Positions 58,295 through 61,977 of a stretch of 64,000 nucleotides of DNA are shown here, piece by piece. The translations under genes and the position numbers were made by a program. Position 1 is the stretch's first letter. Every line of letters starts with the position of its first letter. The notes under the pieces were generated by a model, which ran no database searches, was not told where the DNA came from, and saw only the letters and a list, made by a program, of their open reading frames with translations. This DNA comes from Pandoraea apista (GTDB lineage Bacteria; Pseudomonadota; Gammaproteobacteria; Burkholderiales; Burkholderiaceae): contig NZ_CP013481.2 in the NCBI RefSeq assembly GCF_001465595.2, positions 2,418,001 through 2,482,000 on the forward strand, written 5' to 3'.

Positions 58295-58501
58295 TCAGTC
58301 TTCCTGGCGTACGGCGTGCATTTTTCGGCGTGCGTTCCACATCGCCATGTCCTTGCGGGTGCGCATACGATCGCTGACGTTGATCCCGGAGGGCTGTGCG
58401 TTTGGCGGGGAGGCAGCAATATCGTTGGCTTCGCTGCGTGCCTGCACCATCATGACGAGCGTAAACAGCGAGGCGGCAAGCGCCAGCAAGATCAGCTTCA
58501 T
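58295..58501 (-). CDS. Hypothetical small protein with signal anchor, 68 residues
   Basis: MKLILLALAASLFTLVMMVQ is a signal peptide or anchor; the rest is polar and basic (RTRKDMAMWNARRK). GGGGA lies 5 bp before the ATG at 58501. No family recognised and no clear partner. Confidence 0.45.
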   Translation of the reverse strand: MKLILLALAASLFTLVMMVQARSEANDIAASPPNAQPSGINVSDRMRTRKDMAMWNARRKMHAVRQED

Positions 58502-58958: not shown

Positions 58959-59174
58959 TTACGGCTGATGCGACACGTCGTCTTGTGGCCCGCTGGCCCG
59001 ACCCGCCCGGCGGGCGTTGCGCTCAGGTAACGCCATTGCAGCAAGCGACGCCAGCGCGGCGCCCGCCTGGGCGACCTCGTGCATCACATCGGGCGAGGTA
59101 CCGAGCGCCACCGCGAGTCCGGTCAGCCCGGCCCAGGTCGAGGGCTCGAGTAGCCGTGACAGGAGAAAGCTCAT
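58959..59174 (-). CDS. Holin-like small membrane protein
   Basis: A 71-residue protein with two short hydrophobic segments (LLEPSTWAGLTGLAVALG and AQAGAALASLAAMALP) and a charged, basic then acidic C-terminus. This matches the small phage-type proteins found in lysis or tail modules (holin-like by topology only). Its ATG overlaps the TGA of the chitinase-like gene by 4 bp with AGGAG nearby, so it is translationally coupled to it. That coupling suggests a role in releasing the signal-less chitinase. Confidence 0.6.
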   Translation of the reverse strand: MSFLLSRLLEPSTWAGLTGLAVALGTSPDVMHEVAQAGAALASLAAMALPERNARRAGRASGPQDDVSHQP

Positions 59175-60757
59175 GAGCCACCTCCCGGCGTTGTGTCGTC
59201 GAGCGAGGTCTTGCCGCTGAAGTAGAACGGCGTCATGTCGATGTTCGATACCGTCGTCGTCTGTCCCAGCCCCTCGTGCGCCGCGTTGGCGAGCACGCCG
59301 TTATCCTGATCGATGGTCCAGGTGAAGAGCCCGCCGAGCCCGTTGCGGCGTACGTAGTCGCCCTTGGCGCGAACCGTGCGCGGCGTGTCGAGCGACATGA
59401 ACATGCCGCTCGACGGCTGAAACAGGAAGTCGGCATCGGCCACCGGGTCGGTGTAAAGAACGAAGCCGTTGCGTGCCGCGCCGTTCTCCAGATCGAGGTA
59501 GTTGAACAGCATGTCGTAGTACTCCGTGGTACCCGACTCGAATGTGCCGGTGGTGATGTCGTCGCCTGGCGAATAGGTGCCGGCGAGGGCCGACACTTGC
59601 GCGATGTCCGCCTGAAGGGCGTTACGGGAGTATGCCGCGTAGCCGATGTGCACCTTGGCGAACGGCACGCCAGCCTGACGCAGCCAGTTCACCGCCCGAT
59701 CGATGGAAAAGCCACTGGCGGCGGTTGGGTCCGTATCGTGCAGGTTCGTGTGATGCGCAAGCGCCGGTGCCCACGGGGTGCCGAAGAAGTCGTAGGTCAT
59801 GAGATTCAGACGCGACACGCCCGCCGCAATGAGACCGGGCAGATTGGCCTGGGTCATATCGGCGACGTTGGCCGAGGCGGCAATCGAGATCTCGACGTCC
59901 TTGCGTCCGGCCGCAACCAGCGCATTCTTCAGATCGCCGACGAGCGCCGCGTAGTTGGCGCCATCCGCGTCGTCGTACGTATTGCCCGAATCGCCGGGCG
60001 CGCCGGGATATTCCCAGTCGAGGTTGATCTCGACGAACATCGGAAATCGCTTGAGCAGATCGACCACGCTCGCGCAGAACGTCTTGCGTCGTGGGGCGCT
60101 CGCGGCCATGCCGTGGAACGCCCGACTCATCGTCCAGCCGCCAATGGCGAGCGCCATTTTCAGCGCGGGGTTCTTCGCGTGAAGCAGACGCAGGCCGCCG
60201 AGCACGCCCTGTGCACGCGACTGCTGGAACATTGGTGCGACATCGTTGCTGATCCAACCGTCGAATCCGCAATTACGATAGGCCAGCACGTCGCCCCAAC
60301 TGTCGACGAAAGTGGCCTGATCCGGCTGGCGCGTGAAGTCGGTGGCGGCGCGTGCAATCGTCTGCGCCTTTTCGCCCTGATCGCCGACAATGCCCGAAAA
60401 GCCCACGATCAGACGGTCGTAGGCGAAGGGGTCGAGCAACATGAGATCGACGCCACGCCCTGCGGCGTCGTTGCTGAAGTCGCCGTCGAGCCGTCCGTCG
60501 TATTGTGACCAGTCGGTGTAATAGCCCGAGACTTCAAATGCGTTCTTGGCGTAGCGGTTGTAGACGCGACGGGCCACGCGTGCCGACGTGTACGACAGTT
60601 GTGTCGTGCTGGTGGACGGATCGAAGCCGTTCTGTGCGTAGGTCGTTTCGGTGGCGCCGTTCTGCGGATCGGTCGGGTAGACGAGCTCGCTTTGCGCGGC
60701 GGGCGTGGTGGACAGGGTCGAGCCGGTCGAGGGACGTTGCGAAGTGGTATCGGACAT
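59171..60757 (-). CDS. GH18 chitinase-like protein without signal peptide
   Basis: A 528-residue glycoside hydrolase family 18 protein. An unstructured Ser/Thr/Gln-rich N-terminus (1-60) has no signal peptide. The barrel shows ALAIGGWTMS (the SxGG-like strand 3 motif), VEINLDWE at 242-249 in the place of DxxDxDxE, and LMTYDFFGTPW; Asp247 and the acid Glu249 are kept, but two upstream Asp positions are Val and Asn. The C-terminus FTWTIDQDNGVL is the usual last strand. CAGGAG precedes ATG 60757. It lies between a double winged-helix regulator and an overlapping holin-like gene. Confidence 0.88.
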   Translation of the reverse strand: MSDTTSQRPSTGSTLSTTPAAQSELVYPTDPQNGATETTYAQNGFDPSTSTTQLSYTSARVARRVYNRYAKNAFEVSGYYTDWSQYDGRLDGDFSNDAAGRGVDLMLLDPFAYDRLIVGFSGIVGDQGEKAQTIARAATDFTRQPDQATFVDSWGDVLAYRNCGFDGWISNDVAPMFQQSRAQGVLGGLRLLHAKNPALKMALAIGGWTMSRAFHGMAASAPRRKTFCASVVDLLKRFPMFVEINLDWEYPGAPGDSGNTYDDADGANYAALVGDLKNALVAAGRKDVEISIAASANVADMTQANLPGLIAAGVSRLNLMTYDFFGTPWAPALAHHTNLHDTDPTAASGFSIDRAVNWLRQAGVPFAKVHIGYAAYSRNALQADIAQVSALAGTYSPGDDITTGTFESGTTEYYDMLFNYLDLENGAARNGFVLYTDPVADADFLFQPSSGMFMSLDTPRTVRAKGDYVRRNGLGGLFTWTIDQDNGVLANAAHEGLGQTTTVSNIDMTPFYFSGKTSLDDTTPGGGS

Positions 60758-60843
60758 GGATGGCTCCTGAGGTTGAGTGGACACTTGCCGTCGCCGCGCG
60801 GTAGTGAGCGCATCGGCATTGGCGTAATCAGCGTGCTATCCGC

Positions 60844-61731
60844 TCAACGCCCGGGCCAGCGCAAATGACGTGTCAGGGTGACGAGGGCGCGTGGCAGCGT
60901 CGTTGAGAGCCACGCAAGGGCGCGTGGCATGCGGGGCGCGTGTGCTGGCGTCCGAGGGTTCGGCATCGGCGTATCGCAAGGCTCGAAGCGATAGCCGATT
61001 CGCGGCACGGTCACGATGTGGCGATGCAGGTCGAGAGGAATCAGTTTCCGGCGAAGACGCGAGACGACTTGCATCAGATTGGTGTCGTCCTGCGCGGGAC
61101 GTTCCGGCCACAGCAGCGCGATTAACGTACGTTTGTCATGTACCACGCCGGCAGGTGAGCGGAGGGCACATAGCAATCGATATTCGATCTGCGGAATCCG
61201 CACGACCACGCCATTGCGACGCACCTCGCCATGCCCGTCACGCGCAACGCCCTGGTGGGGCAGCGCGGCGTGCGACGGTGCGTCGGTGGCGTCGCGCACG
61301 GTCAGCGCCTCGGTCCGGGATCGTTCAGGCGACATAGGTACCGCATGCGGGTACGCCGATTCGCGCGTCCTTGAACGGTGTGTGGTGTCGTTTGCTGCGT
61401 TCTCCGTTGCTGCGTTCTCCGTTGGTGCGGCCGGCGCCGGTAAATCGAGGCGATATCCCACGCGCGCCACGGTCACAACCGCGCGTTGCAGTCCGAGAGG
61501 GGCGAGCGAGCGACGCAAGCGCGAGACGAGTTGCACGAGGGCGGTGTCTTCCATCCACTGTGCGCGTGAACCCCACAGCGCTTCCATCAACACGCGCTTG
61601 CCGAGCGCCGTGCCTGCGCGCGCGGCAAGCAGTATGAACAAACGTTTTTCCTGTTCCGATAGCCGTGCGGAAATGCCGTCGCGCTGCACGAGATTGGTGA
61701 CCTCGTCGAGGTCGTAAGGTGACATCGGCAT
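60844..61731 (-). CDS. Receiver-less regulator with two winged-helix domains
   Basis: A 295-residue protein containing two OmpR/PhoB-type DNA-binding domains, residues 10-97 and 168-250, with no receiver. The units are alike: LVSRLRRSLAPLG and VVSRLRRKLIPLD in the recognition helix region, and VARVGYRL and VPRIGYRF in the wing. A Thr/Ala/Arg-rich linker with a short repeat (TENAATENAAN) joins them, and a basic 45-residue tail follows. No membrane segment is evident, unlike ToxR or CadC. AAGGAG precedes ATG 61731. It lies 86 bp upstream of the chitinase-like gene on the same strand and probably controls it. Confidence 0.85.
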   Translation of the reverse strand: MPMSPYDLDEVTNLVQRDGISARLSEQEKRLFILLAARAGTALGKRVLMEALWGSRAQWMEDTALVQLVSRLRRSLAPLGLQRAVVTVARVGYRLDLPAPAAPTENAATENAANDTTHRSRTRESAYPHAVPMSPERSRTEALTVRDATDAPSHAALPHQGVARDGHGEVRRNGVVVRIPQIEYRLLCALRSPAGVVHDKRTLIALLWPERPAQDDTNLMQVVSRLRRKLIPLDLHRHIVTVPRIGYRFEPCDTPMPNPRTPAHAPRMPRALAWLSTTLPRALVTLTRHLRWPGR

Positions 61732-61977
61732 GGGGCGCTCCTTGTAACAAGTCAGAGTCGCCAACCCTAGCGACGCGCGTTCGCCTGTCACAAGGCGGCA
61801 AGCGCGACATAGATACCGTCATCGGCCGTACGTCGACAGGCGTTGCGCGTCCCGGGTGCCTTGGCAATGTCACGCGTCTCCCGGCGAGGTAAGATAGCTG
61901 CCGTATCTCGCAATGGTGGCCCGATAGCTGGCGGTGCGGCGCCATTGCCGACTTCCCGAACCCTCCCGGATTTCGTC

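What the first reader, a model, noticed from the sequence alone, without database searches (positions are those of the whole stretch)
58959..61731. Regulator, signal-less GH18 chitinase and coupled holin-like peptide as one cassette
Three genes on one strand: a double winged-helix regulator, a GH18 protein with no export signal, and a two-segment membrane peptide whose start overlaps the GH18 stop by 4 bp (seen). Known family logic: some Serratia chitinases leave the cell through a holin-based (type 10) route. Here the peptidoglycan hydrolase and spanins of that route are absent, so this could be a minimal or different release system. The function as a secretion unit is inference.
Basis: partly seen in the sequence, partly recalled or inferred. 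Interest (0 to 1): 0.75.

Follow-up and report, generated by a model that had tools for sequence, protein, structure and literature searches.

The report
Chitinase release cassette with phage peptide
A Pandoraea bacterium carries a three-gene unit (a control protein, a chitin-cutting enzyme without an export tag, and a small phage-derived membrane peptide) that looks like a stripped-down version of a known enzyme-release system and could show whether such release can work without a wall-cutting partner.

Summary
On the minus strand lie a double winged-helix regulator (61731-60844), a signal-less GH18 protein (ATG 60757, stop 59171) and a 71-aa peptide (59174-58959) overlapping the GH18 stop by 4 bp. 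It is a real unit: 21 of 32 Pandoraea genomes hold all three genes; none of the other 11 holds the regulator. The peptide is under purifying selection (pN/pS 0.13).

Kin loci support the type-10 reading, through Salmonella ChiA rather than Serratia. The GH18 belongs to the Yersinia Tc-chitinase family. Some relatives carry a similar regulator plus holin and muramidase; 49 of 79 loci show no such partner. Pandoraea has no hydrolase beside the GH18; of five hydrolase families searched in its genome one gave a marginal match.

The peptide is new to this setting. Outside Pandoraea no relative was found beside GH18; some lie in PM2-like (corticovirus-type) phage contigs downstream of a lysozyme. 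Best reading: a chitinase-release cassette using a domesticated corticovirus-type holin-like peptide. Whether it exports GH18 or lyses some cells is untested. New variant of a known kind.

The parts
60844..61731 (-). Regulator, 295 aa, two winged-helix (Trans_reg_C) domains, no receiver domain found
   Evidence: Pfam, two stretches; conserved upstream of GH18 in 21 of 21 intact Pandoraea loci
59171..60757 (-). GH18 protein, 528 aa, no visible export signal; Yersinia Chi1/Chi2 - Salmonella ChiA type
   Evidence: Pfam, solved-structure sequence search, hydropathy
58959..59174 (-). 71-aa two-helix peptide of a corticovirus-type phage family, holin-like
   Evidence: Coupling, selection, model, relatives in PM2-like contigs
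59181..59186 (-). Ribosome-binding-like GGGAGG for the small gene, inside the GH18 gene
   Evidence: Sequence
60764..60768 (-). Ribosome-binding-like AGGAG for GH18
   Evidence: Sequence, conserved in the alignment
61760..61793 (-). Conserved non-coding element upstream of the regulator, possible promoter or regulator site
   Evidence: Conserved over the 21 loci; one match in the own genome at up to 3 mismatches

Best explanation
It is a dedicated, self-regulated chitinase-release cassette that works like a type 10 secretion system but is reduced. The double winged-helix protein, a relative of the regulators of kin loci, switches on the operon, perhaps through the conserved element at 61793-61760 (inferred). 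The GH18 protein is made in the cytoplasm without a visible export signal (seen in the sequence). The translationally coupled 71-aa peptide, of corticovirus-type (PM2-like) phage kinship (shown by homology and by the phage context of relatives), then inserts in the inner membrane and opens or depolarises it (inferred). The GH18 leaves either directly through the lesion or by lysis of some cells, the wall being opened by host enzymes, because no hydrolase gene is in the cassette (inferred).
For: All-or-none presence: 21 of 32 Pandoraea genomes have the three genes together and 0 of the other 11 have the regulator at E<=1e-10. Near-clean empty sites in G020 and G011; absences scattered on a one-gene tree. 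Purifying selection on the small gene. GH18 closest to Yersinia entomophaga Chi1/Chi2. Among 74 usable named loci of this GH18 family a winged-helix regulator is the commonest neighbour (28), with a muramidase in 9 and a 3-TM protein in 9; Pfam names representatives GH108, Phage_holin_3_3, PF11860 and Phage_holin_8. The same order is secretion-proven in Salmonella (PMC10109510 passages). Relatives of the small protein lie in viral contigs, 14 of 42 with a PM2-like coat or packaging-ATPase cluster and 11 of 42 with an endolysin cluster. PM2 itself has no recognised endolysin (PMC1950889, PMC6356626 passages).
Against: No peptidoglycan hydrolase in the cassette; in the own genome no match to PF05838, PF11860, PF13539 or PF00959 and one marginal PF00182 match in a decayed-looking stretch, so a full type 10 route is not shown; the controls for PF05838 and PF11860 rang nowhere, so those absences are weak. 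49 of 79 named GH18 loci gave no hit to any of ten partner queries in their flanks (many distant or cut short), so the GH18 family as a whole is not tied to holins. The small protein has no significant match to a named holin family (Pfam none; one PHROG of unknown function, E 0.012; best structural match 'Holin [Corticoviridae sp.]' at E 0.4). Relatives stand near lysozymes with a hydrophobic N-terminus, which would also fit a pinholin that passes no proteins. G013 keeps the small gene alone.
Confidence: 0.6

Rival explanations
1. Pinholin-type suicide release (one form of the best explanation): the peptide only collapses the membrane potential in a few induced cells; host autolysins, or a lytic enzyme encoded elsewhere, then lyse these cells and free the GH18.
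For: In PM2-like contigs relatives lie downstream of endolysins whose N-termini look membrane-anchored (topology read by eye). PM2 P17 punctures the membrane while the wall is most probably opened by host factors (PMC6356626 passage). Y. entomophaga releases its cargo by lysis of a subpopulation (PMC10847048, title and passages).
Against: No experiment; the anchored endolysins may be virion enzymes of membrane-containing phages; no comparison with PM2 P17 or with known pinholins was made.
Confidence: 0.35
2. Endolysin-free direct export (the other form): the peptide makes lesions large enough for folded GH18, the cells survive, and normal wall turnover lets the enzyme through.
For: No hydrolase beside the gene, although two Burkholderiaceae relatives (L061, L064) have one; translational coupling ties peptide dose to cargo dose; Salmonella ChiA secretion is reported as non-lytic (PMC10109510 passages; PMC13284979 abstract).
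Against: A 2022 review states that in Gram-negatives only endolysins had been shown to cross by holins (PMC9527704 passage); Salmonella ChiA secretion needed the hydrolase as well; the peptide's helices are short.
Confidence: 0.25
3. Passenger gene: the peptide is a prophage leftover or membrane toxin that became coupled to GH18, and the GH18 has no dedicated release route.
For: In the sister pair G013/G009 the small gene survives or decays apart from GH18. Cupriavidus and Paraburkholderia BCC1886 loci have GH18 and regulator with no holin or muramidase that these searches could see, and 49 of 79 loci show no partner at all.
Against: Tight coupling in 21 of 21 intact loci and purifying selection across the genus.
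Confidence: 0.2

Closest known systems
Salmonella ChiA type 10 secretion locus (PMC10109510, passages)
   Same: Same GH18 family without visible signal (L102, S. enterica diarizonae, 50% identity), adjacent winged-helix regulator, a holin-like gene at the locus
   Different: No muramidase and no LysR gene; regulator has two winged-helix domains instead of one plus a membrane segment, and is co-directional; the holin-like peptide belongs to another family and is coupled to the GH18 stop
Paraburkholderia xenovorans / Trinickia loci (L061, L064)
   Same: Double winged-helix regulator and GH18 of the same tree group (100/99)
   Different: They carry a PF11860 muramidase and a Phage_holin_8-like gene, a divergent regulator, and a longer GH18 protein
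Yersinia entomophaga Chi1/Chi2 (Tc-complex chitinases)
   Same: Closest solved GH18 chains, 376-380 bits against 180 for the next
   Different: No Tc gene recognised nearby; no TcA_TcB_BD match in the own genome (control silent)
Serratia marcescens ChiW/ChiX chitinase secretion
   Same: A holin serving chitinase release
   Different: There the chitinases use Sec and the holin moves an endolysin (PMC9527704 passages); here no signal is seen and no endolysin is adjacent
PM2-like (corticovirus-type) phage small protein with EPSTWAG motif
   Same: Homologous small protein of about 50-75 aa
   Different: In phage contigs it sits near coat, ATPase or endolysin genes; here behind a chitinase gene, with a conserved C-terminal tail ending in QP

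Membership tests
Type 10 secretion system | Holin gene in the cargo locus | tested here: inconclusive
   Homology to a phage small protein found near endolysins, and a two-helix model, but no significant match to a named holin family
Type 10 secretion system | Peptidoglycan hydrolase gene in the locus | tested here: not met
   The block holds only the three genes; four hydrolase families without match and one marginal match in the own genome
Type 10 secretion system | Spanin genes | not tested
   No spanin gene was recognised in the block, but embedded frames were not searched for; the word spanin does not occur in the Salmonella ChiA paper
Type 10 secretion system | Cargo without another export signal | tested here: met
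   No strongly hydrophobic N-terminal segment in 21 loci (hydropathy only)
Type 10 secretion system | Holin-dependent release shown by experiment | not testable with these tools
   Needs bench work
Yersinia Chi1/Chi2 type GH18 | Sequence closer to this group than to ChiA-type chitinases | tested here: met
   376-380 bits against 180
GH18 with standard DxDxE motif | Both aspartates present | tested here: not met
   Asn at one Asp in 18 of 21 Pandoraea proteins, Asp in 3; of 74 named loci 66 have Asp, 5 (all Pandoraea) Asn, 3 other or not found. Activity not tested
ChiR/ToxR-like chitinase regulator | Winged-helix domain, gene next to the chitinase gene | tested here: met
ChiR/ToxR-like chitinase regulator | C-terminal membrane segment | tested here: not met
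   A second winged-helix domain is there instead, in Pandoraea and in the 9 other Burkholderiaceae loci (Pfam for the window, L064 and L070; the rest by reading)
Corticovirus-type phage small protein (EPSTWAG family) | Sequence homology, and phage context of relatives | tested here: met
   Profile matches outside the genus to E 1.9e-14 (G216); 14 of 42 viral contigs with a coat or ATPase cluster; coat representative Pfam P2_N/P2_C

The most novel reading that the evidence does not exclude
Pandoraea has evolved an endolysin-free protein-release system: a corticovirus-type holin-like peptide, translationally coupled to its cargo and run by its own double winged-helix regulator, lets a folded chitinase of about 57 kDa cross the inner membrane, so that the cargo itself rather than an endolysin is what the holin moves.
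Probability: 0.25. Interest if true: 0.85.

Novelty: new variant of a known kind. Interest (0 to 1): 0.62.

Why it matters
Whether holins in Gram-negative bacteria can move cargo proteins themselves, or only endolysins, was open in a 2022 review (PMC9527704 passage). Here a holin-like peptide is stitched to the cargo gene with no hydrolase beside it in 21 genomes, one per species, with natural empty sites for comparison. That makes the question testable with a single-gene removal. It also suggests that tailless, membrane-containing phages, and not only tailed ones, have supplied parts of such release systems.

Tried and rejected
Rejected or led nowhere: (1) Chance ORF or overlap: 21 of 21 conservation and pN/pS 0.13. 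(2) The small ORF 58295-58501 and its neighbours as extra lysis genes: they lie in flank DNA that also occurs in genomes without the cassette (G020, G011). (3) A Tc island: no Tc gene recognised near, and no TcA_TcB_BD match in the own genome, but the control was silent. (4) A widespread small gene-GH18 pair: of 366 family genomes outside the genus 12 match the small-protein profile, and none of the 12 stretches taken had a GH18 match; four of these stretches are short (6.0-6.6 kb, near contig ends). (5) Named phage records: 2 poor matches among 50,697. (6) Sigma-70-like promoters: none found; terminator-like sites 3, shuffles 2.9. (7) A regulon of the conserved element: one match, its own. 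(8) The same element in other genera: not convincing. (9) The first locus script ignored the strand of minus-strand loci and was replaced. (10) One search stopped with an error after 16 of 18 rows; only those rows are used. (11) Structural search in the viral library: 0 of 168 matches at E<=0.001.

Rows dropped before counts: 5 of 79 named loci had no usable GH18 frame; 1 of 210 pairs was left out for low pS, and 37 and 180 pairs in the two shifted-frame controls; rows beyond L111 and those without the anchor motif were left out of the tree. The regulator count of 28 is a lower bound: Pandoraea locus L059 was missed by ORF choice but matches. The neighbour clusters are not independent, as many loci are from related enterobacteria; two clusters with 9 loci are plain flank genes (DnaK- and DnaJ-like by my reading).

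Full report
What is there. On the minus strand, between 61731 and 58959, stand three genes in order: a 295-aa regulator with two Trans_reg_C winged-helix stretches, a GH18 protein, and a 71-aa peptide. The peptide's ATG overlaps the GH18 stop by 4 bp and is preceded by GGGAGG inside the GH18 gene. The GH18 start is most likely ATG 60757 behind AGGAG, not the GTG of the ORF list. The window is Pandoraea by its GH18 protein, which is 99% identical to one named P. apista; it lies at 2418001-2482000 of contig C1 of its genome.

It is one unit. Of 32 genus genomes, 21 hold a full GH18 match, 2 a fragment (G009, G013) and 9 none. All 21 intact loci carry the small gene at -4 (11), +2 (9) or +24 bp (1) from the GH18 stop and the regulator upstream. 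Searched on its own, the regulator is found in the same 21 and in 0 of the other 11 at E<=1e-10. The small protein is found in the 21 and in G013, where the regulator and all but 21 codons of GH18 are gone; this is the one case against strict coupling. In G020 and G011 the flanks that border the cassette in the window lie about 84 and 40 bp apart, without the block, so the unit lies within about 58.90-61.87 kb. In G007 the same flanks are about 1.2 kb apart, with other DNA between. On a tree of one flanking gene (29 rows, no support values shown) the absences fall in several places, Fitch count 4 with the outgroup rows, which suggests repeated loss of the block. The small gene's 50-codon core has a median pN/pS of 0.13 in 209 pairs, against 1.9 (173 pairs) and 2.2 (30 pairs) when the frame is shifted.

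Control element. Upstream of the regulator a 34-bp stretch (61793-61760) is strongly conserved over the 21 loci. With up to 3 mismatches it has one match in the own genome, itself. No sigma-70-like promoter was found by consensus. It may be a promoter, a regulator site, or both; this is inference.

The GH18. Its best solved relatives are the Yersinia entomophaga chitinases Chi1 and Chi2 (376-380 bits), well ahead of the next (180 bits). No strongly hydrophobic N-terminal segment is seen in the 21 Pandoraea proteins or in the 16 relatives printed. One aspartate of the DxDxE motif reads Asn in 18 of 21 Pandoraea proteins and Asp in 3; of 74 named loci 66 have Asp, 5 (all Pandoraea) Asn, and in 3 the motif was different or not found. 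Activity may be altered; this was not tested.

What the relatives show. A scan of named genomes gave 79 loci, the best of more that matched. Clustering the neighbour ORFs of 74 usable loci without a target in mind gave a winged-helix regulator as the commonest neighbour (28 loci), then a LysR-like gene (12), then several 9-locus clusters: a muramidase, a 3-TM protein, and two flank housekeeping genes. Pfam names representatives GH108/PG_binding_3, Phage_holin_3_3 (LydA), N-acetylmuramidase PF11860 and Phage_holin_8. By tblastn over all 79 loci: GH108 in 11, LydA-type holin in 12, PF11860 in 2 (L061 Paraburkholderia xenovorans, L064 Trinickia), Phage_holin_8-like in 3 (L061, L062, L064), and the Pandoraea peptide in the 6 Pandoraea loci only. 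All 9 Burkholderiaceae loci from other genera have a regulator of the double type. Against the reading, 49 of the 79 loci gave no hit to any of the ten queries; they include Photorhabdus, Xenorhabdus, Klebsiella, Vibrio and Streptomyces loci, and several are cut short. Erwinia L096 has a GH24 lysozyme and a LydA holin after GH18, so the hydrolase class has been exchanged.

Link to known systems. The enterobacterial gene set is that of the Salmonella chi operon, where removing holin or hydrolase abolished ChiA secretion and the regulator ChiR is ToxR-like with a membrane segment (PMC10109510, passages). In Y. entomophaga a PhoB-like regulator, RoeA, controls the lysis cassette (PMC10101115, abstract and one section). 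In a tree of 58 GH18 rows the group of Burkholderiaceae rows, with one Citrobacter and one Nocardia row inside it, has support 100/99 and Pandoraea 100/100; L022, whose small protein is identical to one named P. terrae, is at the base of Pandoraea. So the Pandoraea cassette is kin to loci of the type 10 kind.

The small peptide. Within Pandoraea it is 62-72 aa with an invariant RL.EPSTWA and a nearly invariant QP end. A profile search gave 35 matches at E<=0.1: 20 of the Pandoraea form (E<=4e-26) and 15 weaker ones. Of 366 family genomes outside the genus 12 match, none with a GH18 match in the stretch taken. A viral contig scan gave 42 loci. Of these 14 carry a coat or packaging-ATPase cluster and 11 an endolysin cluster, whose median place, prophage loci included, is 1.4-1.5 kb upstream of the small gene. 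Representatives were named by profile: P2 coat protein PF18628/PF25513, Phage_lysozyme, PHROG endolysin, and PHROG terminase for the ATPase. The AlphaFold model is a helical hairpin (mean pLDDT 73); its best viral structural match is annotated Holin [Corticoviridae sp.], 40% identical over 52 columns, but with E 0.4 it is not significant. The peptide is therefore of corticovirus-type phage kinship and probably a holin or pinholin; its activity is inference. PM2 itself has no recognised endolysin and is thought to rely on host lytic factors, while some PM2-like elements do have endolysins (PMC1950889 and PMC6356626, passages).

Missing hydrolase. The own genome gave no match to PF05838, PF11860, PF13539 or PF00959; the controls for the first two rang nowhere, so those are weak. 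One marginal PF00182 match (24.7 bits) lies in a decayed-looking stretch. So the type 10 set is not complete, and I do not file the cassette as a type 10 system; I say that it most likely works like one.

Mechanism. Best supported: regulated production of a cytoplasmic GH18 and a matched dose of a membrane-opening peptide, with release of GH18 either through the lesion or by lysis of some cells. Shown: gene order, coupling, selection, kinship, phage kinship of the peptide, no adjacent hydrolase. Inferred: membrane activity, release, control by the regulator. A 2022 review says that in Gram-negatives only endolysins had been shown to pass by holins (PMC9527704 passage), which is why a cargo-coupled holin-like gene without an endolysin is of interest.

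Novelty. Searches for Pandoraea with chitinase and holin (0 papers), type 10 secretion with corticovirus (0 papers) and type 10 secretion with Burkholderia (5 papers, listing only) showed no description of this cassette. (Pandoraea, chitinase, secretion: 18 papers, 15 listed) was seen as a listing only; none of the 8 rows listed, of 514 matching, holds the term T10SS. Most subscription papers are not covered.

Noticed in passing
window 60757-59171 and 21 Pandoraea loci: An aspartate of the GH18 DxDxE motif reads Asn in 18 of 21 Pandoraea proteins, while the other genera scanned mostly have Asp; catalysis may be altered.
   Followed up: partly
P0036, P0054, P0058, P0061: Dictyostelium purpureum and Heterostelium album (and one unnamed eukaryote entry) encode relatives of this GH18 at 54-57% identity over 87-91% of its length, which suggests gene transfer between bacteria and amoebae.
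   Followed up: no
L134-L140, L144 and viral loci L182-L223: PM2-like (corticovirus-type) prophages and contigs with P2 coat protein, packaging ATPase and endolysins with a hydrophobic N-terminus; one small-protein copy with a stop lies in a Pandoraea genome (G015, L144) that also has the cassette.
   Followed up: partly
L066, L063: A Nocardia panacis GH18 nests among Burkholderiaceae rows and a Citrobacter amalonaticus one is sister to Pandoraea in the tree: likely horizontal transfer.
   Followed up: no
L065, L067-L070: Cupriavidus and Paraburkholderia BCC1886 loci have a small lipoprotein-like gene behind GH18 and no holin or muramidase that was found; its role is unknown.
   Followed up: partly
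L142 (G013) and L143 (G009): Two neighbouring Pandoraea genomes on the one-gene tree show the cassette in decay with different deletion ends; in G013 the small gene alone stays open.
   Followed up: partly
L181 (own genome 4526000-4538000): Marginal GH19-like fragment in a stretch of short, decayed-looking ORFs.
   Followed up: partly
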